This document shows positions 9,424 through 60,835 of a stretch of 64,000 nucleotides of DNA, one piece after another. This DNA comes from a virus: the IMG/VR virus record IMGVR_UViG_3300037184_000121, positions 1-64,000 of that record, one strand, 5' to 3'. The notes under the pieces are model-generated. The model had not been told where the DNA came from and did not search any database. It saw only the letters and a list, made by a program, of their open reading frames with translations. Made by a program: the position numbers and the translations under genes. The stretch's first letter is position 1; each line of letters starts with the position of its first letter.

Positions 9424-10497
9424 ATGCCTAATTATAGATGGAAACAAATTTTAGAAATGTACCCAAATCAACAAGAAGTAATTGATTTGTATAATTCTAA
9501 ACAAATAAAAGAATTAAAAGAGCTTTGGAATTGTTCTGTGGATTGTGTTCGAACTGTTAGAGATAAACTTGGATTACAAAAGAAGAATATCTCTCAGATT
9601 GAATTAATACAAAGATACACAAAAGAACAATTAGAAGATTTATATTTTAATAAGTATGATCGACATTTGAAAGATATGTCTGCAGGTCTTAATGTTTATC
9701 AAGATACGTTGTCTCAAGTTTTTGAAACCTTGAATATTGTTCAACAACCACATCATGTAAGTGAGTATGTTGAAGTGAGACAAATTTTAAGTGAAAAAGC
9801 TAAAGAAAGAGCAAAAATTGAAAATCCAATTAATCACATTTTAGATCATCCTGATTGGATTGATAATATGGTAAAGGCACGACAAGATAATGATAGTTAT
9901 CAAAAGCCTCATCATAAGAATGAACATGCTTTGGCAATTCCTCTTGAACAATTAAAGCAGGAGGTACAATTTTTAGGCATTCAAGAAATGGCAAAGAAGT
10001 ATGAATGTAGTCCGTCTACTTTATATCAAATTTGTAAAGATAATAATATTGAATTATCTACAGGGGCTCCTCTTGCGATAAGGCAGACCGAGAAGTATAA
10101 ACAACAAGCTTATAGACGTGGTGTATTGGGAGTTTTAAAAGTAAAGAGAGCAGATACTGACATAGAGAAGTTGTTAAAACACGAATTGAGATTTAGGAAA
10201 ATCAAATTTAGAAGTCGAAAGCGTTTAATAAAAAGAACTATCCCAGATGTCATTATTCAACCCAATATAGCAGTTTTTACTGATGGGTGTTTTTGGCATG
10301 GTTGTCCTGAACATTGCCCAACAAGTAAAATTGGATTGGGACGTTCTGTGGTAGATTTAGAAATTAATATTGAGTTAGCTAAGAAAGGTTATAAAGTATT
10401 TAGAATTTGGGGTCATGATGTGAAAGATCCTATTAAATTAAAAGAATTTGTTAACACTGTAGAAGCCTATATCAATGAGCAGAAAAATAGAAGATAA
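9424..10497 (+). CDS. Vsr/DUF559-like homing endonuclease
   Basis: This 357-residue protein ends in a Vsr-type nuclease domain (about 240-350): IPDVIIQPNIAVFTDGCFWHGCPEHCP carries the Asp and the FWHGC core typical of very-short-patch-repair endonucleases and I-Bth0305I-like homing enzymes, followed by a KVFRIWGHDV strand. The N-terminus has a helix-turn-helix-like module (WKQILEMYPN, then ELKELWNCS), also present at the C-terminus of the GIY-YIG enzyme at 22184. A second HTH-like segment is at about 185-215. It has its own promoter and is most likely selfish DNA rather than a repair enzyme. Confidence 0.85.
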   Translation: MPNYRWKQILEMYPNQQEVIDLYNSKQIKELKELWNCSVDCVRTVRDKLGLQKKNISQIELIQRYTKEQLEDLYFNKYDRHLKDMSAGLNVYQDTLSQVFETLNIVQQPHHVSEYVEVRQILSEKAKERAKIENPINHILDHPDWIDNMVKARQDNDSYQKPHHKNEHALAIPLEQLKQEVQFLGIQEMAKKYECSPSTLYQICKDNNIELSTGAPLAIRQTEKYKQQAYRRGVLGVLKVKRADTDIEKLLKHELRFRKIKFRSRKRLIKRTIPDVIIQPNIAVFTDGCFWHGCPEHCPTSKIGLGRSVVDLEINIELAKKGYKVFRIWGHDVKDPIKLKEFVNTVEAYINEQKNRR

Positions 10498-10672
10498 TCC
10501 ACTTTGTATTTGTGGGCATCATCAAGGAATTCATCTTATGGATGGTAAGACTAGATGCCTTTGGGAAGAAAATGAATTATCACCTAAATATGATTGGTGT
10601 AGATGTAATAAGTTTAAACAAGATAACCTTAAGTTTTTAGAGATGCACTATGAAAAGAAAACCAAAATTTGA
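10475..10672 (+). CDS. small zinc-knuckle protein with C-terminal NLKFLE motif
   Basis: This 65-residue protein overlaps the end of the endonuclease by 23 nt. It has CICGHHQGIH, two later Cys groups (CLW, CRC) and a C-terminal FKQDNLKFLEMHYEKK. The Cys/His pattern C-x-C-x-H-x4-H followed by C...C-x-C looks like a small zinc-binding fold. The DNLK(Y/F)LE tail recurs in at least seven other small proteins in this window (50352, 55112, 59494, 59669, 59877, 60097, 60494). Function unknown; the others are early-region genes, so this one is an outlier. Confidence 0.65.
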   Translation: MSRKIEDNPLCICGHHQGIHLMDGKTRCLWEENELSPKYDWCRCNKFKQDNLKFLEMHYEKKTKI

Positions 10673-18022: not shown

Positions 18023-19051
18023 ATGGGAAATCTCTTTAGTGTAAATGGAACGACAGGTAGTATAGTAACAGCTGGATCAATCACTTCTGCTGGTGTTCCA
18101 ATTTTGCCAGCTCATCCATTTTTAGCTAGTGGGGGAACTATTACACCAGATGCTACTATTACTAATACAGTATTTGTTACAGTTGATGCTGCTGCAACAA
18201 TTAATGGCCCAACAGGTGGATATGATGGACAAAAGATAACATTTAGATTAGCCCAGGATAGTACGGGCCATGCAGTTACTTTTTCAACAGGATCTGGTAA
18301 TTTTCGATTTGGTGCTGATATACCTTCATTTACGGCTTCAAGAGCTTATGGCACAGACTATGTAGGAGTTATCTGGAATAATAATGATTCTGTTTGGGAT
18401 ATTGTAAGTGTTATTCAAGGATTTTCTGCAGCCCCACCACCCGCAATCATAGCACTTGTAAATACTACACATGCTTATGCGACTGCTAGTACTACTTGTC
18501 CTATTCCAGTTTCGACAACATCTGCAGGTAATTTACTTGTTATTGGAATTTCTCAATCAAGTAGTGGAGCCTTCGTATCCAGCGTAACAGATAATGCTAC
18601 TATTACTAACACCTATGTTCAAGCTCCTGGTGCTTATACTTCTGGTGCACTGATGTCAGATATTTGGTATTGTGAAAATTGTCACTCTGGGGCAACAGTA
18701 ATTACTGTTAACTTTGCAAGTCCATCCTCAACACCTGTTTGTTCCGCTTCCGAATATTCTGGTGTTCTTACATCAGGAAGTTTTGATACTGCAAATCATA
18801 TTCAAGGTGGAAGTGTAAGTCCTTCAATTACCCCTTCTACTGCAGGAGAACTTTTGTTTGTTACAGCAGGGTCATCCGATGCCTTTCTATCAGCCATGAC
18901 TGGTGCATGGGTCGTTGATGGATATGAACCAACTGATGATGGGTATATTTGGGGGCATTATATTAATCCCCCATTAAGTGTCCAATCCACAACCTTTACT
19001 CCTTCTGTTTCTAATATGGCTTCATCTGTTGCATCATTCTTACCTGCATGA
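18023..19051 (+). CDS. adhesin-like protein (342 aa), second of a duplicated pair
   Basis: This protein is collinear with the C-terminal 330 residues of the 439-residue protein but lacks its N-terminal attachment region, starting instead with GNLFSVNGTTGSIVTAGSIT. It keeps the jelly-roll-like segment (GGTITPDATITNTVFVTVDA) and the DIWYCENCHSGATVITV domain, and ends in the same SNMASSVASFLPA. The last 282 bp are nearly identical between the genes, while the upstream halves have diverged, which points to gene conversion of the 3' end. Its stop overlaps the Kelch start. Confidence 0.7.
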   Translation: MGNLFSVNGTTGSIVTAGSITSAGVPILPAHPFLASGGTITPDATITNTVFVTVDAAATINGPTGGYDGQKITFRLAQDSTGHAVTFSTGSGNFRFGADIPSFTASRAYGTDYVGVIWNNNDSVWDIVSVIQGFSAAPPPAIIALVNTTHAYATASTTCPIPVSTTSAGNLLVIGISQSSSGAFVSSVTDNATITNTYVQAPGAYTSGALMSDIWYCENCHSGATVITVNFASPSSTPVCSASEYSGVLTSGSFDTANHIQGGSVSPSITPSTAGELLFVTAGSSDAFLSAMTGAWVVDGYEPTDDGYIWGHYINPPLSVQSTTFTPSVSNMASSVASFLPA

Positions 19052-19054
19052 GTC
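18773..19054 (+). repeat. 282-bp direct repeat, copy 2
   Basis: This is the second copy of the repeat at 17671-17952. It ends at the first bases of the Kelch gene (ATGAGTC), so the repeat unit includes the start codon of the downstream gene. Confidence 0.9.
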
Positions 19055-20187
19055 CCGCACCTTTAACATGGTTTCTTACTGGGAATCTCACTTATGCTAG
19101 AGATGGCTATGCAGGTGCTGTATTGCCAGATGGGAAAGTATTAGTCACTGGAGGAGATGTTCATCTAGGTCCTGATACTCCAACAACTTCTTGTGAACTT
19201 TATGATCCTGTACCTGGAACATGGAGTGCTGCAGGTCCATTGGGTACAGCACGATCTTTTCACAATGCTATTCTTCTTAATAATGGTCAAGTTTTAATTG
19301 TTGGTGGAGCTTCTGGAGGATCAGGTAGTTCCTGCTTAACTTCCTGTGAATTATATGATCCTTCCACAAATACATGTAGTCCTACAGGTTCAATGGCTGA
19401 AGGAAGGGCTCTTATAGGGATCTGGTTATTATCGAATGGTAAAGTTTTAGTAGCTGGGGGCATTCCTACTTTTGTTATTGGAACTTCTTTAGGAACATCA
19501 GAGCTTTATGATCCATCTACAGGTTTGTGGACTCCAACGGGTGATTTAAATACAGCCGTTGGAGGACCTTCAGCTGTTACCTTATCAGATGGTACTCCTC
19601 TTTGTATTGCAGGTAATCAGTCAGGTCCATGGGGAAATTCTTCACAAATTTACTCTGTTTCAGATGGAACATGGAGTGCAACAACAGGAGTGTCAGCTTA
19701 TTCTTTTGAGTGTGGTGGTGGTAATAATTCTATTCTTCTTAATAATGGGAAAGTATTGACTGCAGCGGGGAATCCCCCTCCCATGCACTCAGGAGTGTGT
19801 GAACTTTATGATCCTGGAACACAGACATACACTTTAACAGGGTCTCTAAATATTCCAAGAGCTGAAGCATGTCTCTTTAAATTAAGTGATGGTAGAATTC
19901 TAATAGCAGGTGGTGATCTATCAGATGGTGAGAGTTGTACTAATACCTGCGAAATATATGATCCAAGTTTAGGAACATGGACCATGGCTTCCCCCCTCAC
20001 CACCAATAGAGCTACTGGGCCTTCAGACTTGGGATTTCAACTCCACAATGGAGATTTATTGTGGCCTTCTGGAGCCTATAATTTTACTTCATTAAATGGT
20101 ACATCTGTAGATCGACTTAGCCAAACAGGAATAACTCCAGTAGTAGTTTCAGCAAAACAAAAAGCTTCGACAAATTTAGTTTTTTAA
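19048..20187 (+). CDS. Kelch-type beta-propeller protein
   Basis: This 379-residue protein overlaps the previous stop (ATGA). It is a chain of about six Kelch-like repeats, each with (G/N)GKVL(V/I)(T/A)GG followed by CELYDP or SELYDPSTG and a Trp: for example DGKVLVTGGDV...CELYDP, NGQVLIVGGAS...CELYDP, NGKVLVAGG...SELYDP. Such propellers bind glycans or proteins and are common in secreted bacterial proteins but less so in phage tails. There is no signal peptide, so it is likely a virion appendage subunit, perhaps a host-binding tip. Confidence 0.8.
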   Translation: MSPAPLTWFLTGNLTYARDGYAGAVLPDGKVLVTGGDVHLGPDTPTTSCELYDPVPGTWSAAGPLGTARSFHNAILLNNGQVLIVGGASGGSGSSCLTSCELYDPSTNTCSPTGSMAEGRALIGIWLLSNGKVLVAGGIPTFVIGTSLGTSELYDPSTGLWTPTGDLNTAVGGPSAVTLSDGTPLCIAGNQSGPWGNSSQIYSVSDGTWSATTGVSAYSFECGGGNNSILLNNGKVLTAAGNPPPMHSGVCELYDPGTQTYTLTGSLNIPRAEACLFKLSDGRILIAGGDLSDGESCTNTCEIYDPSLGTWTMASPLTTNRATGPSDLGFQLHNGDLLWPSGAYNFTSLNGTSVDRLSQTGITPVVVSAKQKASTNLVF

Positions 20188-27155: not shown

Positions 27156-28889
27156 TTGCCAGATCTATTAGGCCCTTCTGGGCAACCTTTGCCACCTAAC
27201 CCTTTTACACAGTCACAGTCGCAGAATGTGAGTGCTAATGTTTCTGTTAATACCCAACCTGCTGAGAGAGCTTTTGCTGACTTGCAGAAGGTTCTAGATG
27301 GGTTGATGAAGAACTTTGGGGTGAATTGGGAGAAAGCTTCTCATGATGGAATGGCTGCACAAGAACGATTTTATAGTTATATTGGGGATAAACAGAAAGA
27401 ACGGGAATTGGCTCTAAAACGATATAGTTCCGAAGCTATTAGTGGTATAGAAAAGGAAAGAGATGCAGCTATTGCAGCATTAGACGCAAAGAAGATGGCT
27501 CATGAAGATTTTGAAAAAGAAAAGACACGAATTACAGATGATGCAGAAAAAGCTAGAAAGAAGATTGGGGAAGAGACTGATAGAAAAAGAAAGCAATCTA
27601 GTGGAGTTATGCAGTCTATTGCAAAATTTGCTGGTGATGTAGGAGGTCCTTTTGGAGGAGCAATAAGTTCACAGATAACAAGTATGGCAGAGCATCCAAT
27701 AGCATATCTTGTTTCTGGTGCAATAATGGCAGGTATAGAGAAAAGTATAGTTCATGCTCAGTTTACAAGAGCTGGGGCAGGACTTGCAGGAGCAGGATTT
27801 AGGCTTGGTGCAGGTGCTTCAACTGCAGAAGCTTTTGATAGAGCTTTATTTGGTCCTGGTGTAGCAGGAGGCCGTTTTGGGGCAGCTTTATCAAGGGATC
27901 AGCAAGTACAGATTATGGCGCAAATGGCTGGATCTAGAACAATGATAGATCAAGCTAGAGGTGGGGGTTTTGGAGCTATTTCAGGGAATCTTGGTTTATT
28001 TGCAAATATCCTTCCTGATGCTTCAAAAGAGATGGAAATTTTTACAGATGCTACTAAAGATTTAGGGATGTCTCAGAAAGATATTACTAACACTTTTGTT
28101 TCTTCTCGTGTTAATGCGGATCGTCTTAAAATAACTCAATTAGATGCTATTGCAACCCAGATGGATATGGCAAGAGCCCTTCGTAATGTTACAAATGATG
28201 GAGTAGTTGCAGCAAATGTTCTTTATAATATTACTGGTTATTTGAATGCAATTGGAGCAAGTGAGAGTGAAAAGATTAGAATAGCGGGAGCTGTTGGGCA
28301 AGCAGGAGCCAATCTTTCTTTTCAAACACTTTATGGAATGTCCACTTTTCTTAATGATGGGAAAAGACCAACCTTTGAAGGTATGTTTGGCACAGGTGCC
28401 TATGGAGTTGCAGGAAGCAAGGTAGGAATAATGCATGACCCTTTTAAGACATTAGGAGGGTTTTTAACTAAAATTGGAGGACAGTTTCACGATCCTAATG
28501 TCAGAATGCTTGTAGCTTCCCAATTGATGGATAAATATGTTCCTGGCCTTCGTATGCAAGATATTCCTCAATTTTTTAATCTTGCAGCTGCTGCTATGCG
28601 GGGAGATAAGGGCATAGATTATGGAAAAGAATTTGAAAAATTAGAGAAAAAGACTCCCCAAATAGCTATGGCTGAAGGTATTAATACGTTAGTTCAGATT
28701 GTTGCTCCTATCGTAAGATTGGAGAATGTATTTACTAACTTCTGGCCAATGATTGATGAGCGTATAAATAAGTTATTCAATCATTTTGGAATAGGTACAA
28801 TTAAGGGATTGCCAAAAAAGATGATGGATTGGGTTGACATGAATATTAAACACAAAGGACCAGCAGGTGGTGCTTCTGGTACTTATTAA
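27156..28889 (+). CDS. tape measure protein
   Basis: This 577-residue protein starts at TTG behind TGAGGT. It has a Pro/Gln-rich N-terminus, a charged coiled coil (about 60-150, KERELALKRYSSEAI and onward), and a long Gly/Ala-rich hydrophobic region (about 155-290, FAGDVGGPFGGAISS, AGAGLAGAGFRLGAG) as found in tape measures that cross the host membrane. Position after the frameshifting chaperone and before the hub genes confirms the role. Using the family rule of about 1.5 angstrom per residue, the tail would be short, roughly 85-90 nm (inference). Confidence 0.8.
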   Translation: MPDLLGPSGQPLPPNPFTQSQSQNVSANVSVNTQPAERAFADLQKVLDGLMKNFGVNWEKASHDGMAAQERFYSYIGDKQKERELALKRYSSEAISGIEKERDAAIAALDAKKMAHEDFEKEKTRITDDAEKARKKIGEETDRKRKQSSGVMQSIAKFAGDVGGPFGGAISSQITSMAEHPIAYLVSGAIMAGIEKSIVHAQFTRAGAGLAGAGFRLGAGASTAEAFDRALFGPGVAGGRFGAALSRDQQVQIMAQMAGSRTMIDQARGGGFGAISGNLGLFANILPDASKEMEIFTDATKDLGMSQKDITNTFVSSRVNADRLKITQLDAIATQMDMARALRNVTNDGVVAANVLYNITGYLNAIGASESEKIRIAGAVGQAGANLSFQTLYGMSTFLNDGKRPTFEGMFGTGAYGVAGSKVGIMHDPFKTLGGFLTKIGGQFHDPNVRMLVASQLMDKYVPGLRMQDIPQFFNLAAAAMRGDKGIDYGKEFEKLEKKTPQIAMAEGINTLVQIVAPIVRLENVFTNFWPMIDERINKLFNHFGIGTIKGLPKKMMDWVDMNIKHKGPAGGASGTY

Positions 28890-49747: not shown

Positions 49748-50362
49748 ATGCGTGTAAGGTATAATTTAGTCAGGAAAAAATTTGGTAGGCTTTTAGTGAC
49801 GAGTTTCCACCATAAGGATGAAAAATACAGAAGTAATTTCTGGAATTGTCAATGTGAATGTGGTAATATATTAGTACTTTCTGCATCAACTCTTCAAAGA
49901 AAGAAAAGACCTACAATATCATGTGGATGCTATAGATATGATAGGGTGTCGGGTCAGCCAGCTCCAAATAGATTACTTAAGGGTCGAGCAAATTTTAATT
50001 CCTTATTTCAGTCCTATATAAAAGCTGCTAAACAGCGAGAAATAATTTTTCTTCTAACACAAGAGGAATTTCGACAATTGACTAGTCAGAATTGTCATTA
50101 TTGTAATAGTGAGCCACTGCAGAACCATAGTAAAAGGGAAACCTACGGTTCTTATTTATATAATGGTATAGATCGTTTAGATTCTGATAAATCTTATATC
50201 TTAGATAATTGCGTTTCTTGCTGCAAGGTATGTAATTATGCCAAACGAATTATGACAGTTGAAGAGTTTAAATTTTGGATTACACGAGTATATAATAATT
50301 TTGTAAACCGAAGATTGGAGGATCATCCCCTCTCCTCAGCTCCAATTTCTTATGAGCAATGA
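49748..50362 (+). CDS. HNH homing endonuclease with N-terminal zinc domain
   Basis: This 204-residue protein has an N-terminal zinc motif found in many HNH homing enzymes (FWNCQCECGNILVLSASTLQ, then SCGC) and a C-terminal HNH domain: CHYCNSEP, NGIDRLDSDKSYILDN and CVSCCKVCNYAKR. It is preceded by GAGGA. Its end overlaps the next small gene by 11 nt. The flanking genes are short early genes. Confidence 0.85.
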   Translation: MRVRYNLVRKKFGRLLVTSFHHKDEKYRSNFWNCQCECGNILVLSASTLQRKKRPTISCGCYRYDRVSGQPAPNRLLKGRANFNSLFQSYIKAAKQREIIFLLTQEEFRQLTSQNCHYCNSEPLQNHSKRETYGSYLYNGIDRLDSDKSYILDNCVSCCKVCNYAKRIMTVEEFKFWITRVYNNFVNRRLEDHPLSSAPISYEQ

Positions 50363-50588
50363 ATGTCCTTTACCGTGTAAGATTTGCTTTCACCCAGGAG
50401 AGCAGCATTTTGTATTTGAAGATACTGTTACCGAGTGGTTATTTAATGAGGATGTCGGTCATGAGGTCGAAGTAAATTCACCTTATCCTCGTCCTGTCTG
50501 TAATGAATGTTCAAGGGATTGTGTTTTTGAAGAGATGACTAATTTGGAATTTGTGGAATGGAAATATGATAATCATCAATGTAAGTAA
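50352..50588 (+). CDS. zinc-knuckle protein with NLEFVE tail
   Basis: This 78-residue protein has CKICFHPGEQHFVFED, later CNECSRDC, and the C-terminal MTNLEFVEWKYDN. It matches the C-x-C/C-x2-C-x-H-x4-H plus NLxYLE family seen at 10475, 59669, 59877, 60097 and 60494, as a more diverged member. It overlaps both neighbours. Function unknown. Confidence 0.65.
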   Translation: MSNECPLPCKICFHPGEQHFVFEDTVTEWLFNEDVGHEVEVNSPYPRPVCNECSRDCVFEEMTNLEFVEWKYDNHQCK

Positions 50589-54020: not shown

Positions 54021-54205
54021 GTGAGACAGACGATATTTTTGATATTGATGATTTCCTAAAAAAGAAGAAAGCTCCTGCTTATATTCAGAAAGTATGGGAT
54101 AAGCATCTAAGATATCTCAATGAGTGTGAGCAAGCTGCAGAAAAAGGTTTAGAAATAACCCAAGCTCTTAGAACTATTAAAACTGCTCTTGAGAAAATTA
54201 AATGA
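54017..54205 (+). CDS. 62-residue acidic/helical protein
   Basis: The protein starts with an acidic segment (SETDDIFDIDDFLKKKK) and continues as amphipathic helix (LRYLNECEQAAEKGLEITQA). It overlaps both neighbours (ATGA type), so it is coupled in the operon. Possibly a small interaction or inhibitor protein; unknown. Confidence 0.55.
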   Translation: MSETDDIFDIDDFLKKKKAPAYIQKVWDKHLRYLNECEQAAEKGLEITQALRTIKTALEKIK

Positions 54206-54390
54206 GCTTTATAACTAACGACAATACATGTGAGTGTGGGCATCCGAAATCGAACCATGTTTATAACAACAAGTTCGAATCAGTCTGGTGTGAGCTGAAT
54301 CAGAAGGTGTGTGATTGTTGGCAATACAAAGCGAGATATGTTGAGAGTAGAGAATATGTGGATCTTCAAATAGTTAGGGATTACAAATAA
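54202..54390 (+). CDS. zinc-knuckle protein (CxCGHxxxxH type)
   Basis: This 62-residue protein has CECGHPKSNHVYNNKFES, then CELNQKVCDCWQY. The pattern matches the zinc knuckle of the NLKYLE family but its C-terminus (EYVDLQIVRDYK) lacks a clear NLKYLE motif. It overlaps the preceding stop by 4 nt. Probably a diverged member of the same family. Confidence 0.6.
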   Translation: MSFITNDNTCECGHPKSNHVYNNKFESVWCELNQKVCDCWQYKARYVESREYVDLQIVRDYK

Positions 54391-55111: not shown

Positions 55112-55609
55112 ATGAATTATGGGGAGTTCTTAGCAGAAGCTCTTGGTGGTATTTTAATCTCCTATAAAGAGCATGGTAGCTCTCAGGGAGATTATGTTGC
55201 GATCATTGAAAAAGATCATGACTGGCATATTTATAAAGGGAGTTATGGATCTTGTACTGGTTGTGATTGGTTAAAGGGTACTCGAATTTATAGTGAAGAA
55301 GACTACAAGAAGTATGATCAAGATACGTATGATAGGGAAGCTCTTGAGAAGTGCGAAATCCTTCAATCGGTTAAGGACGAATATTTAAAAGAGAATGAGC
55401 CTTTCCTTATCATTCCAAAGTCTCAGATGCCTGAAACCTTAGAAGATTTGAAAGCTCTTTTGCCAGCGAACACAAGAACGATTGCTGACGAGAATTATAA
55501 TGACTTGGATTTGGATGCAGTGATTTTTGAGCAGATGAAAAATTTTCGATTGAATAACTTAGAGTATTTAGAAAAGAAAATTGAAGGCAAGGAGAGTTAT
55601 GGCGAATAA
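55112..55609 (+). CDS. hypothetical protein with NLEYLE C-terminal tail
   Basis: This 165-residue protein has an alpha/beta N-terminal part (DYVAIIEKDHDWHIYKGSYG, with CTGC) and an acidic middle. Its last 20 residues contain FRLNNLEYLEKKIEG, the same C-terminal NLxYLE element as the zinc-knuckle family but attached to an unrelated body. The start is 2 nt after the previous gene. Function unknown. Confidence 0.6.
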   Translation: MNYGEFLAEALGGILISYKEHGSSQGDYVAIIEKDHDWHIYKGSYGSCTGCDWLKGTRIYSEEDYKKYDQDTYDREALEKCEILQSVKDEYLKENEPFLIIPKSQMPETLEDLKALLPANTRTIADENYNDLDLDAVIFEQMKNFRLNNLEYLEKKIEGKESYGE

Positions 55610-56431: not shown

Positions 56432-56576
56432 TAATGGTAGTTTCTTAGACGTATCAGTATCTCACGGTTTGTTTAATATGAATGCCCAGGTCAAATTGGT
56501 AAACCTTTTGATTGGGTACGCTATATTAGGTTTGATTATTGCTGTCCGTTGGTATCGTAAACATAAAAATAAATGA
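56418..56576 (+). CDS. 52-residue small membrane protein
   Basis: The frame begins inside the end of the HNH gene and ends overlapping the start of the transporter (ATGA). One membrane helix (VNLLIGYAILGLIIAVRW) is followed by a basic tail. It could be an accessory subunit of the transporter, judging only from coupling; an internal ATG at 56478 is an alternative start. Confidence 0.5.
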   Translation: MKISNNGSFLDVSVSHGLFNMNAQVKLVNLLIGYAILGLIIAVRWYRKHKNK

Positions 56577-57745
56577 ACTTTCTATTTGTCCTTGCAGCAC
56601 TAGTTCACTTCAGTCAGGGTATTGCGTCCCTGGCTGGTCAACCTTTATACTATTACCTGAGAGAACACCTGGGTATCAGCGTTTCCACTATTATGCTGAT
56701 TGGTTCACTCACGAATCTACCATGGATGCTGAAACCTTTGTATGGATTCCTTAGTGACTCATACCCCATTTTTTCCCTCCGTCGTAAACCCTACATTTTT
56801 ATCAGTGGAGCTATCTGTAGCATTATGGCCCTTGTGATCGGGCTTTCCCCTATTGTTTCCCTTAGCGTGTTGATCGGATTCCTTTTCATTTATGCCATTG
56901 GGCAAGCAGGAGATAATGTTGCCGTGAATGGTCTTGTGGTGGAGCAGGGGGTGAAGGATGGGACTGTGGGCAAGTATCAAAGTGTCCAATGGGCAAGCCT
57001 TGGTGTAGCGACTATCATTACAGGTATCCTGGGCGGCTATATCTCTGAAAAGGCTGATTATCACTTTGCCTATTTGGTGATTGCTTTATTTCCTGCATCT
57101 ATTATGGTGCTATCCTTCTGGCTCAAAGAAGAGAAGTGTAAGAAGATTATCAGAACGATTGGTTCTATGCATCCTACTAAAGAGTTTTTTGTTAAGCTGA
57201 ATAATCGGCAGCTCATCCTTTCAACTGCTTTCCTATTCCTGTTTTGGTTTGATCCATCCTTTGGGACTCCATTAATGGACAAGATGCGTAACACCCTTCA
57301 TTTTTCGAAGATTTGGATTGGATGGCTGGATACCATTGGCTCAGCATTTGGTATCGTTGGAGCGTTGATTTATTTTAAGTACAATAAGGGTCTAAATGTT
57401 AAAAAATGGCTGTATTATAGCGTTATTTTGAATGGTATCTTTACATTCGCCTATCTGTGGCTTACTCCCACAACTATACTGATTTATAGTGTTGTTTTTA
57501 ATGTCACTGGTCAGTTTACTCATCTTTTGATGCTTGGGATGATGGCCTATATGTGTCCAGAGGGCACTGAAGCCACTACATTTGCCCTTCTAACGGCTAT
57601 TGTTAACTTTGGGTCATTCTGTTCAGGCATCGTTGGGGCAAAGTTATTTGGGCTATTTGGATACAATGGATTGGTCATTATTTCGGCAGCAGCAGGGTTT
57701 CTCTGTTTGCCATTTATACCATTTCTACAGGTGCGAAATAAATAA
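56573..57745 (+). CDS. BT1/folate-biopterin-like MFS transporter
   Basis: This 390-residue protein has about 12 hydrophobic segments and the BT1-family N-terminal pattern: SLAGQPLYYYLREHLGIS, IMLIGSLTNLPWMLKPLYGF, LSDSYPIFSLRRKPYIF (the MFS loop 2-3 motif), then AIGQAGDNVAVNGLVVEQGV. Relatives import folates, pteridines or amino acids. Full-length MFS transporters are rare in phages, and this one is intact. It overlaps the preceding small membrane gene. Substrate and direction of transport cannot be told from sequence. Confidence 0.8.
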   Translation: MNFLFVLAALVHFSQGIASLAGQPLYYYLREHLGISVSTIMLIGSLTNLPWMLKPLYGFLSDSYPIFSLRRKPYIFISGAICSIMALVIGLSPIVSLSVLIGFLFIYAIGQAGDNVAVNGLVVEQGVKDGTVGKYQSVQWASLGVATIITGILGGYISEKADYHFAYLVIALFPASIMVLSFWLKEEKCKKIIRTIGSMHPTKEFFVKLNNRQLILSTAFLFLFWFDPSFGTPLMDKMRNTLHFSKIWIGWLDTIGSAFGIVGALIYFKYNKGLNVKKWLYYSVILNGIFTFAYLWLTPTTILIYSVVFNVTGQFTHLLMLGMMAYMCPEGTEATTFALLTAIVNFGSFCSGIVGAKLFGLFGYNGLVIISAAAGFLCLPFIPFLQVRNK

Positions 57746-59493: not shown

Positions 59494-59676
59494 ATGATTA
59501 GGTATTTTGTCAAAAGTCAACGGTTTCAATTTAGCGTTAAGGATGAATTTTTATGTGGTGGGAAACCACTATGGGATCAGACACTGATGGATTTAGCAGG
59601 GATTGGTATAAATTATATTCCAGCGGATAATTTAAAATATTTAGAAAAGTGTTGGGAAGAATCTATAAATGAATAG
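59494..59676 (+). CDS. 60-residue protein with NLKYLE tail, no zinc knuckle
   Basis: This protein has a beta N-terminus (RYFVKSQRFQFSVKDEF) and ends with ADNLKYLEKCWEES, the motif of the zinc-knuckle family, but only two isolated Cys. It starts the overlapping operon 59494-60463. It shows that the NLKYLE tail occurs on a non-zinc-knuckle body. Confidence 0.6.
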   Translation: MIRYFVKSQRFQFSVKDEFLCGGKPLWDQTLMDLAGIGINYIPADNLKYLEKCWEESINE

Positions 59677-59884
59677 TATTCCTTGTAAATGTAGTCATGG
59701 ATTAGAGGAGCATTTTCTAAATTCATCAAATAGGATTACATGCAGAGTGTGTGCTGCTCCAATATTTAGCATGAGCAAGGAAGAATGGAATTTAAAAAAG
59801 AAAGAATTAAGGTTTTATTGGGTACATCCATACAAGAGAGATAACCTCAAATATTTGGAGCAGTTGGTGAGTAACAATGACTGA
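59669..59884 (+). CDS. zinc-knuckle protein with NLKYLE tail
   Basis: This 71-residue protein overlaps the previous gene by 8 nt. CKCSHGLEEHFLNSSNRITC gives the C-x-C-x-H-x4-H part, then CRVCAAP, and the C-terminus has KRDNLKYLEQLVSNN. It belongs to the family of at least eight small proteins with this tail. Function unknown. Confidence 0.7.
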   Translation: MNSIPCKCSHGLEEHFLNSSNRITCRVCAAPIFSMSKEEWNLKKKELRFYWVHPYKRDNLKYLEQLVSNND

Positions 59885-60104
59885 GCAAGAGCGTCAAGAA
59901 CAGCGCATTAACTTTTATAAAATAAGGGCTATGTCTCCTTGCCTCTGCAGCCATGAATCTATCGATCATACCTGTTGGGTAGATGCTGATGGAAGTGGAA
60001 AAGGACTTGTGTATCCTGATTTTAGATACTGTGACACAAGGTATTGTGAATGTGAGAAGTATAAACAAGACAATCTAAGATACCTGGAGAGTTTAAGTGA
60101 GTAA
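59877..60104 (+). CDS. zinc-knuckle protein with NLRYLE tail
   Basis: This 75-residue protein overlaps its neighbours by 8 nt on each side. An N-terminal helix precedes CLCSHESIDHTCWVDADGSG; then YCDTRYCECEKYKQDNLRYL and E complete the zinc knuckle and tail. The tail lies directly after the last Cys pair, as in the copies at 10475 and 60097. Confidence 0.7.
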   Translation: MTEQERQEQRINFYKIRAMSPCLCSHESIDHTCWVDADGSGKGLVYPDFRYCDTRYCECEKYKQDNLRYLESLSE

Positions 60105-60291
60105 AGATTTTCCTTGTGAGTGTGGACACATAAGGCAGTCAGAGGAAACCCTCAACAGTATTTGTGTATCATGGCATGATGATAGAGATAATGATCATCA
60201 ATTAGCTGCATGTCGCTACTGTGATTGTAAGAGATACAGACCAAGTAATTTAAAGTATTTAGAAAGGTTGGCTGAAAAGTATGAATATTGA
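60097..60291 (+). CDS. zinc-knuckle protein with NLKYLE tail
   Basis: This 64-residue protein has CECGHIRQSEETLNS, then CRYCDCKRYRPSNLKYLERL. The first knuckle lacks the second His at the usual spacing, but extra His and Cys residues follow. Overlaps neighbours on both sides. Function unknown. Confidence 0.7.
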   Translation: MSKDFPCECGHIRQSEETLNSICVSWHDDRDNDHQLAACRYCDCKRYRPSNLKYLERLAEKYEY

Positions 60292-60463
60292 AATGAAAGA
60301 TGATGAAGTATTTGATTTTTTAAGTAAGAAATTGACCGTTCTTCAAGTTGATATAAAATATAATGAGAATGGGCCTACTTGGTTAGCACAGATGGAGAAG
60401 ATAAAATCCTTAACTAGAGCTGTGGAAGTTATAGTTAATAGGAAATTTAATGAACCTGAGTAA
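60281..60463 (+). CDS. 60-residue helical protein at the end of the zinc-knuckle operon
   Basis: The product is helical and acidic (MKDDEVFDFLSKKLTVLQVD, MEKIKSLTRAVEVIVNRKF). It overlaps the previous gene by 11 nt. No Cys. It could be a partner of the zinc-knuckle proteins, judging by coupling only. Confidence 0.55.
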   Translation: MNIEMKDDEVFDFLSKKLTVLQVDIKYNENGPTWLAQMEKIKSLTRAVEVIVNRKFNEPE

Positions 60464-60471
60464 TAAAGCCC

Positions 60472-60495
60472 TTGACAGCACTGGATAATTATAAT
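60472..60495 (+). promoter_or_regulatory. promoter-like remnant with abnormal spacing
   Basis: CCC-TTGACA is followed by TATAAT after only 12 bp instead of 17, in the usual place between two operons. TTGACA and TGTCAA at 60495-60500 also form an inverted repeat. The ATG of the next gene overlaps the TATAAT. It looks like a promoter that lost about 5 bp. Confidence 0.4.
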
Positions 60496-60835
60496 GTCAA
60501 ACAGTAATAGATATATAAGTGTTTTGAAATGCAAATGTAATCATAAATATTATGAGCATGAGTTTTTCGATAGCAAGGATATAGGGTTTGATATTGATCC
60601 TCGTCCAGAAGCATGTATTTATTGCGAATGTCTTGATTTTGTAGATTGGAGAATAAATAGGTGGTGTATTTGTGGTCATGCTGAAAGTGAACACCATCTT
60701 GGCATTGTATCAGGTTCTACTATTTGTCGTGAGTGTCTTAGGTTTAATATAAATCGTAATACTCATCCATTTAGGCCAGATAATCTAAGATATTTGGAAT
60801 GGAAATGGGAAGAAAAATTAGCTCTTGACAAGTAG
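60494..60835 (+). CDS. double zinc-knuckle protein with NLRYLE tail
   Basis: This 113-residue protein carries two knuckles in tandem: CKCNHKYYEHEF...CIYCECLDF and CICGHAESEHHLGI...CRECLRF, then FRPDNLRYLEWKWEEKL. It is the longest family member. The start is uncertain because the ATG overlaps a -10-like sequence; a TTG at 60524 would still keep both knuckles. Its 3' end overlaps the -35 box of the next promoter. Confidence 0.65.
   Translation: MSNSNRYISVLKCKCNHKYYEHEFFDSKDIGFDIDPRPEACIYCECLDFVDWRINRWCICGHAESEHHLGIVSGSTICRECLRFNINRNTHPFRPDNLRYLEWKWEEKLALDK

What the first reader, a model, noticed from the sequence alone, without database searches (positions are those of the whole stretch)
59494..60835. 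Expanded family of tiny zinc-knuckle proteins sharing a C-terminal NLKYLE motif
At least eight small proteins (10475, 50352, 55112, 59494, 59669, 59877, 60097, 60494) end in a (D/N)NL(K/R/E)(Y/F)(L/V)E element. Most have a C-x-C-x-H-x4-H plus C-C knuckle before it, but 55112 and 59494 have the tail on different bodies. Four of them are translationally coupled in one operon. A shared C-terminal tail on varied bodies suggests a common docking partner, such as a host polymerase, protease or ribosome. This is the best candidate here for an undescribed system.
Basis: partly seen in the sequence, partly recalled or inferred. Interest (0 to 1): 0.88.

Follow-up and report, generated by a model that had tools for sequence, protein, structure and literature searches.

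The report
Phage toolkit sharing one docking tail
A little-known group of large bacterial viruses each carries a dozen to about sixty tiny, very different proteins, most with a zinc-binding knuckle, that all end in the same short helix; the pattern suggests that every one of them plugs into a single unknown partner during infection.

Summary
All eight proteins exist, and the 107.6-kb source phage has about 21. Across 14 IMG/VR contigs a tail profile finds 211 coding-strand ORFs (E<0.01), 0 on the opposite strand and 0 in reversed proteins. Contigs hold up to about 60 tails each, in overlapping arrays of up to 15 genes. The core is [DNST]-N-L-x-[YF]-L-E in a probable short C-terminal helix. Synonymous codons are scrambled, so selection acts on the protein.

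Bodies vary: 245 form 128 clusters. Most have zinc knuckles; some have none, including 55112, whose body domain occurs tail-less in Escherichia phage Seurat. Knuckle and tail are separable modules.

A sister phage clade (capsid about 81% identical) carries similar knuckles and the 55112 body but a coordinated tail variant, DNLxYIExLAKxKxL[VI]-COOH. Position +4 is L in 98% of clade-A tails and I/V in 99% of clade-B tails, also between body-matched proteins. Deeper sisters essentially lack both modules.

Best reading: a docking helix co-evolving with one shared partner, unidentified. Candidates are a Clp protease machine (weak support), the capsid interior, or host polymerase/ribosome. The module matches no Pfam, PHROG or PDB entry.

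The parts
10475..10672 (+). 65-aa knuckle protein (CICGHHQGIH ... CRC) ending in tail DNLKFLE (10622-10642)
   Evidence: AF2 of this protein puts the only long helix at residues 51-63, the tail, at low confidence
50352..50588 (+). 78-aa knuckle protein (CKICFHPGEQH ... CNECSRDC) with tail TNLEFVE (NLEFVE at 50541-50558); similar members G001 60702 and G003 64995
55112..55609 (+). 165-aa protein: phage domain also found tail-less in Escherichia phage Seurat gp72 and Stenotrophomonas phage CUB19 gp38, plus C-terminal tail NNLEYLE (55553-55573)
   Evidence: clade-B counterpart carries the clade-B tail
59494..59676 (+). 60-aa protein without knuckle (one Cys), tail DNLKYLE (59626-59646); first gene of the overlapping array
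59669..59884 (+). 71-aa knuckle protein (CKCSHGLEEH ... CRVC), tail DNLKYLE (59840-59860); 8-nt overlap with 59494 ORF
59877..60104 (+). 75-aa knuckle protein (CLCSHESIDH ... CDTRYCEC), tail DNLRYLE (60069-60089); 8-nt overlap with previous ORF
60097..60291 (+). 64-aa protein, GTG start, degenerate knuckle (CECGH, second His missing; CRYCDC), tail SNLKYLE (NLKYLE at 60247-60264); 8-nt overlap with previous ORF
60494..60835 (+). 113-aa protein with two knuckles (CKCNHKYYEH...CIYCEC and CICGHAESEHH...CREC), tail DNLRYLE (60779-60799)
54202..54390 (+). 62-aa knuckle protein WITHOUT tail; tail-less counterparts G003 70113, G011 17368, G013 35130: knuckle and tail are separable

Best explanation
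The tail is a short C-terminal docking helix: [DNST] N-cap, then N-L-x-[YF]-L-E-x-x-Y in clade A and D-N-L-x-[YHL]-[IV]-E-x-L-A-K-x-[KR]-x-L-[VI]-COOH in clade B. It attaches a large, fast-diversifying set of small phage proteins to one common partner. The bodies, mostly CxCxHx4H...CxC zinc knuckles, are the variable, target-specific ends; the tail is the constant end. Each phage keeps tens of such proteins and adds new ones by duplication in overlapping arrays and by fusing the tail to unrelated domains. Shown here: the modules, their modularity, protein-level constraint, array structure, and the clade-wide coordinated tail switch. Inferred: helix formation, zinc binding, one shared partner, and effector/adaptor roles against host proteins. 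The partner is not identified; a Clp-type protease machine is my leading single candidate (about 0.2).
For: Scale and strand: 211 coding-strand hits, 0 opposite, 0 reversed at E<0.01; loose counts per contig 12-63 in clade A, 31-38 in clade B, 0-3 in four deeper sisters. Constraint on protein: L1 230/235, Y/F3 222/235, L4 229/235, E5 231/235, with 193 distinct 18-mers among 235; clade B 70 distinct among 71, synonymous sites near genome expectation, so no recent gene conversion. Core 85% identical where bodies are 50% and the next six residues 39%. Modularity: tail on knuckles and on non-knuckle bodies, conserved in pairs such as G001 62190/G003 62780 and G005 13516/G012 14750; knuckle without tail; 55112 body tail-less in other phages. 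Co-variation: tail type follows the phage clade, not the body; +4 is I/V in 0 of 24 clade-A and 96% of 26 clade-B body-matched proteins, +8 is Ala in 8% vs 100%.
Against: No partner was found. A shared structural role (packing on the body) or self-association could give part of the pattern. AF2 models are poor (mean pLDDT 56 and 63), so the helix is only suggested. Many knuckle bodies could descend from one already-tailed ancestor in each clade, which would explain some of the uniformity without a partner; the strongest counter-cases (55112 body, the L238:12823 and L240:3606 groups) are few. Hosts of the two clades are unknown, so a switch driven by a host protein cannot be separated from one driven by a phage protein.
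Confidence: 0.6

Rival explanations
1. Clp adaptor bank (a specific form of the best explanation): the tail docks on a Clp unfoldase/protease (host ClpX/ClpC/ClpA or the phage-encoded ClpP), and each body captures a different host protein for degradation or sequestration, as SspB and phage SPO1 Gp53 do singly.
For: A ClpP homologue (PF00574; divergent copy E=1.6e-24, second copy aligns to PDB ClpP at 1e-61) occurs in G001, G005, G009 (2), G012, G014 (2), G015, G022 and in none of eight tail-less sister records. Several lie inside or next to tailed arrays. Ser and His of the catalytic site align. Precedent: SPO1 Gp53 is a phage adaptor-like protein acting on ClpC (PMC6873191); SspB docks on ClpX through a C-terminal motif (PMC7226468).
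Against: Not found in G000, G003 or G013 (fragments). About twenty other families share the A+B-only profile. Adjacency is only moderately above control genes (25% of controls also lie within 100 nt of a tailed gene). The tail does not conserve the LKxh-like ZBD-binding consensus: +2 is E in 106 and K or R in 92 of 235.
Confidence: 0.2
2. Capsid cargo tag: the tail loads the small proteins into the prohead, and they are ejected with the DNA as a first wave against host defences, like T4 internal proteins with their capsid targeting sequence.
For: Conserved tailed groups ('MPIRRIKN...', 'MFNS...TTT') sit inside the head operon between portal, head-maturation protease and MCP in G001, G003, G008 and G012, with overlapping reading frames, and related members occur in G002 and G009, so they are probably made late with head proteins. 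T4 CTS is a short tag on divergent bodies, one of them anti-restriction (PMC9026906).
Against: Most tailed genes lie outside the head operon. Clade-B phages carry 31-38 tailed proteins by a loose count, yet the clade-B head operon examined has no knuckle-tail gene inserted between portal and MCP. The T4 tag is N-terminal and proteolysed; here it is C-terminal and cleavage is untested. No scaffold partner identified.
Confidence: 0.15
3. Host transcription or translation docking: the tail binds host RNA polymerase, a sigma factor or the ribosome, and the bodies tune different steps of host takeover.
For: Many small genes in overlapping arrays, as in host-takeover modules (general knowledge; SPO1 module of 26 genes, PMC6873191). 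Coordinated tail change between clades could track a change of host.
Against: No direct evidence; host unknown. Some conserved members lie in the head operon, where late expression is likely.
Confidence: 0.12
4. Structural tail: the helix is just the last element of the zinc-knuckle fold, or a self-association helix, without an external partner.
For: In most members the tail follows the last CxC or H-x-F within about 4-8 residues.
Against: The tail is kept on non-knuckle bodies and some knuckle proteins lack it. Tail type switches by clade across unrelated bodies. Tail core far more conserved than the bodies.
Confidence: 0.12
5. DNA-level or chance artefact: repeated 3' sequence (promoter, ribosome-binding or recombination element) or coincidental similarity of small AT-rich ORFs.
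For: Tails lie just upstream of the next start, and E/K-rich codons can act as ribosome-binding sites.
Against: 193 distinct 18-mers among 235 and 70 among 71; shuffled, reversed, opposite-strand and sister-genome controls are empty or nearly so.
Confidence: 0.01

Closest known systems
T4 internal proteins with capsid targeting sequence (IPI/IPII/IPIII)
   Same: One short tag on rapidly diverging small phage proteins, one of them anti-restriction; tag conserved while bodies vary (PMC9026906)
   Different: T4 tag is N-terminal, 10-19 residues, cleaved by gp21, on a handful of proteins; here C-terminal, up to about 60 carriers per contig, mostly zinc-knuckle bodies, cleavage and packaging untested
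SspB ClpX-binding C-terminal motif (XBR)
   Same: Short C-terminal docking motif tethering a substrate-binding body to a shared machine (PMC7226468)
   Different: One adaptor per cell rather than tens of paralogues; tail consensus does not conserve the LKxh-like motif; interaction untested
Phage SPO1 Gp53 (ClpC adaptor-like) and the SPO1 host-takeover module
   Same: Phage protein redirecting host ClpCP; dense cluster of small host-acting genes (PMC6873191)
   Different: 25-kDa single protein of a module without a common tag that I know of; no sequence relation tested
Bacterial microcompartment encapsulation peptides
   Same: Short terminal helix fused to unrelated cargo to bring it to one shared target (PMC12339742 abstract)
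   Different: Cellular enzymes and shells, no relation in sequence; here phage proteins with unknown target

Membership tests
T4-type capsid targeting sequence (internal head proteins) | Tag at the N-terminus of the cargo | tested here: not met
   Tail is C-terminal in nearly all members
T4-type capsid targeting sequence (internal head proteins) | Incorporation into prohead and cleavage by prohead protease | not testable with these tools
   Needs virion proteomics
SspB-type ClpX adaptor | C-terminal ClpX-binding motif with LKxh-like consensus | tested here: not met
   Position +2 is E in 106 and K/R in 92 of 235; clade B mostly has S/D/T there
SspB-type ClpX adaptor | Binding to ClpX zinc-binding domain and substrate delivery | not testable with these tools
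   Needs binding and degradation assays
Any curated protein family (Pfam, PHROGs) | Significant match of knuckle or tail to a curated model | tested here: not met
   No Pfam match above cut-off for the ten proteins scanned; PHROGs only weak (best 0.0037 for a knuckle protein) apart from the 55112 body, phrog_28969 at 6.9e-9
Proteins of known structure | Sequence or fold match in PDB | tested here: not met
   Profile A2: best E=0.21, unrelated; Foldseek of a low-confidence model: best E=4.7, which is weak evidence
Zinc-binding knuckle | Invariant Cys/His ligand set | tested here: met
   In A3, whose members were selected for the motif: C 63/63, C 63/63, H 62/63, H 61/63, C 60/63, CxC about 75%; metal binding itself not tested
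ClpP (candidate partner machinery) | Clp protease fold with catalytic Ser and His | tested here: met
   PF00574 1.6e-24; Ser and His align with PDB 4jcq. Concerns the neighbouring gene, not the tailed proteins

The most novel reading that the evidence does not exclude
Each of these phages encodes a modular targeted-degradation bank: tens of small zinc-knuckle receptors, each binding a different host (defence) protein, share one C-terminal helix that docks them on a Clp-type protease, in several genomes alongside the phage's own ClpP. It would be a viral counterpart of interchangeable substrate receptors feeding one degradation machine.
Probability: 0.17. Interest if true: 0.95.

Novelty: new variant of a known kind. 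Interest (0 to 1): 0.8.

Why it matters
Over two hundred mostly unannotated small phage proteins become one system with a testable logic: one constant docking helix, many variable ends. The same partner can be fished out with any tail, and the clade-A/clade-B tail switch gives a built-in specificity control. If the bodies act on host proteins, the arrays are a ready catalogue of host-takeover or counter-defence factors. The tail could also serve as a marker for annotating small-protein dark matter in this phage group and its relatives.

Tried and rejected
Alignment A1 was too divergent for the search for related loci; replaced by degenerate DNA patterns. The first extended pattern also hit phage ribonucleotide reductase (NDNLEYFEDAYE), which was excluded. 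The scan of 84,980 species genomes gave 10 hits, all judged chance: internal to longer proteins or in short unrelated ORFs. INPHARED tblastn with three members or composites found nothing convincing. Two AlphaFold runs (21 and 63 sequences) gave low-confidence models, so fold search was uninformative. Pfam/PHROG scans of odd bodies were mostly empty; the Lar-like restriction-alleviation hit to G001 62190 (E=0.0036) is only a lead. AAA ATPases occur in tailed and tail-less phages alike, so they do not discriminate. DNA-repeat, gene-conversion and ribosome-binding explanations of the tail were rejected on codon diversity. No paper describing the motif was found in the held library (hits judged by title only).

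Full report
Observation. The eight tailed ORFs exist at the stated places. The tail pattern matches 6 times in the window, expected 0.18, reached by 0 of 100 shuffles. The window is part of a 107,602-base IMG/VR phage record with a baseplate wedge subunit, tail proteins and replicative helicases. The rest of that record brings the count to about 21 tailed ORFs, all on the + strand. Seven knuckle ORFs in the contig, plus a frame-broken one at 105126, carry no tail in frame.

Distribution. A relative found by DnaB, a 180-kb contig, has 33 exact tail patterns on its coding strand, 0 on the other and 0 in the control. Two degenerate-pattern scans of 2.9 million viral contigs brought 12 further tailed contigs. 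The first pattern, scanned over 84,980 species genomes, gave only chance hits. An 18-residue tail profile over 7,444 ORFs of 14 contigs gives 211 coding-strand hits, 0 opposite and 0 reversed at E<0.01. The profile was seeded from coding-strand C-terminal matches, so the strand and reversed controls are the safeguard against circularity.

Anatomy. Over 235 tails the core is -1 D/N/T/S, N, L (230), x, Y/F (222), L (229), E (231), x, x, Y or S; N at position 0 was largely imposed by the search. The residues before are often F/Y-x-[PK]. Knuckle ligands are close to invariant in members chosen for the motif. Tail synonymous codons are scrambled: 193 distinct 18-mers of 235. In 63 cross-contig body-matched pairs, bodies are 50% identical, the seven core residues 85% and the next six 39%. 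Adjacent tailed genes less than 60 nt apart overlap at 95 of 97 junctions, with one run of 15. The 245 bodies fall into 128 clusters, 106 of them single.

Modules. Tail without knuckle: 59494, 55112, and conserved pairs such as G001 62190/G003 62780 and G005 13516/G012 14750. Knuckle without tail: the 54202 group, in four phages. The 55112 body is a domain of Escherichia phage Seurat and Stenotrophomonas phage CUB19 proteins that end without the tail.

Evolution. The major capsid protein of contig G008 was used to find relatives. Nearest cultured relatives by capsid and portal are Bacillus phage G (30-33%) and Mycobacterium phages such as Myrna. Among contigs with capsids 90% or more identical, most of those that cover the region carry NLxYLE tails in the head operon. 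A sister group (about 81%: G014, G015, G022) has 14-17 exact knuckle patterns per contig and almost no clade-A tail patterns. Its knuckle proteins end instead in DNLxYIExLAKxKxL[VI] at the very C-terminus: 71 tails in 152 kb, 56 ending exactly 15 residues from N. Deeper sisters (G016, G017, G018, G021) have neither module to speak of, and the head operons examined there lack the inserted genes. Bodies shared between the clades keep clade-specific tails: 55112 and L238:13306 are 44.5% identical over 137 residues with tails NLEYLEKKIEGKESYGE and NLDIIETEAKSKGFI; L240:3606 and G001 176220 match at 60% over 35 residues. In body-matched sets +4 is I/V in 0 of 24 clade-A and 96% of 26 clade-B proteins, and +8 is Ala in 8% and 100%. 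Synonymous sites within clade-B genomes look random, so recent gene conversion is unlikely. Selection by one shared partner is the simplest cause; shared descent from a tailed ancestor explains part of it.

Partner. A gene-content comparison lists families in both tailed clades and missing from deeper sisters: a ClpP protease, a BT1 transporter, a deaminase, MazG, DeoC and several unknowns. ClpP is in 6 of 9 long tailed contigs (plus the short G005) and 0 of 6 long tail-less ones (Fisher p about 0.017, my calculation, uncorrected for the roughly twenty families with this profile). It lies in or next to tailed arrays in several genomes, but adjacency is only modestly above control. It was not found in G000. 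So Clp docking is a lead, not a result. Head-operon members keep the capsid-cargo reading alive.

Limits. Contigs are fragments; ORF starts are mechanical; hosts are unknown; structure models are weak. Zinc binding, helix formation and function are inferred.

Verdict. A real, large, lineage-specific family of phage proteins built from two separable modules, with strong evidence for a co-evolving docking tail and no identified partner. It resembles known tag-plus-variable-body logic (T4 targeting sequence, Clp adaptors, encapsulation peptides), but the defining sequence features of the first two were tested and not met, so it is not filed under them.

Noticed in passing
window 56573-57745: BT1-family MFS transporter (PF03092, E=9e-41) in a phage genome, conserved in both tailed clades and not detected in the deeper sisters.
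   Followed up: partly
L137:9999-10661, L168:13189-13815, L169:3649-4302, L239:14177-14803, L257:3551-4168: Phage-encoded ClpP homologues, two per genome in G009, G014 and G022: one canonical, one divergent.
   Followed up: partly
L016:1126-1336 (contig 105126-105336): A tailed-family member whose reading frame is broken at a short direct repeat; knuckle half and tail half lie in different frames.
   Followed up: partly
L130:10772-11437: Trypsin-like protease (PF13365, E=2.9e-23) with an N-terminal signal-like segment, encoded between portal and capsid genes and kept in several contigs.
   Followed up: no
window 19048-20187: Kelch beta-propeller protein in the structural region.
   Followed up: no
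window 27156-28889: Weak match to phiKZ-like internal head proteins (PF12699, E=6e-4, below curated cut-off).
   Followed up: no
L136:1534-5523, L175:9160-11874, L220:646-4659, L223:2077-5007: Portal genes enlarged by what looks like an intein or other insertion in several relatives.
   Followed up: no
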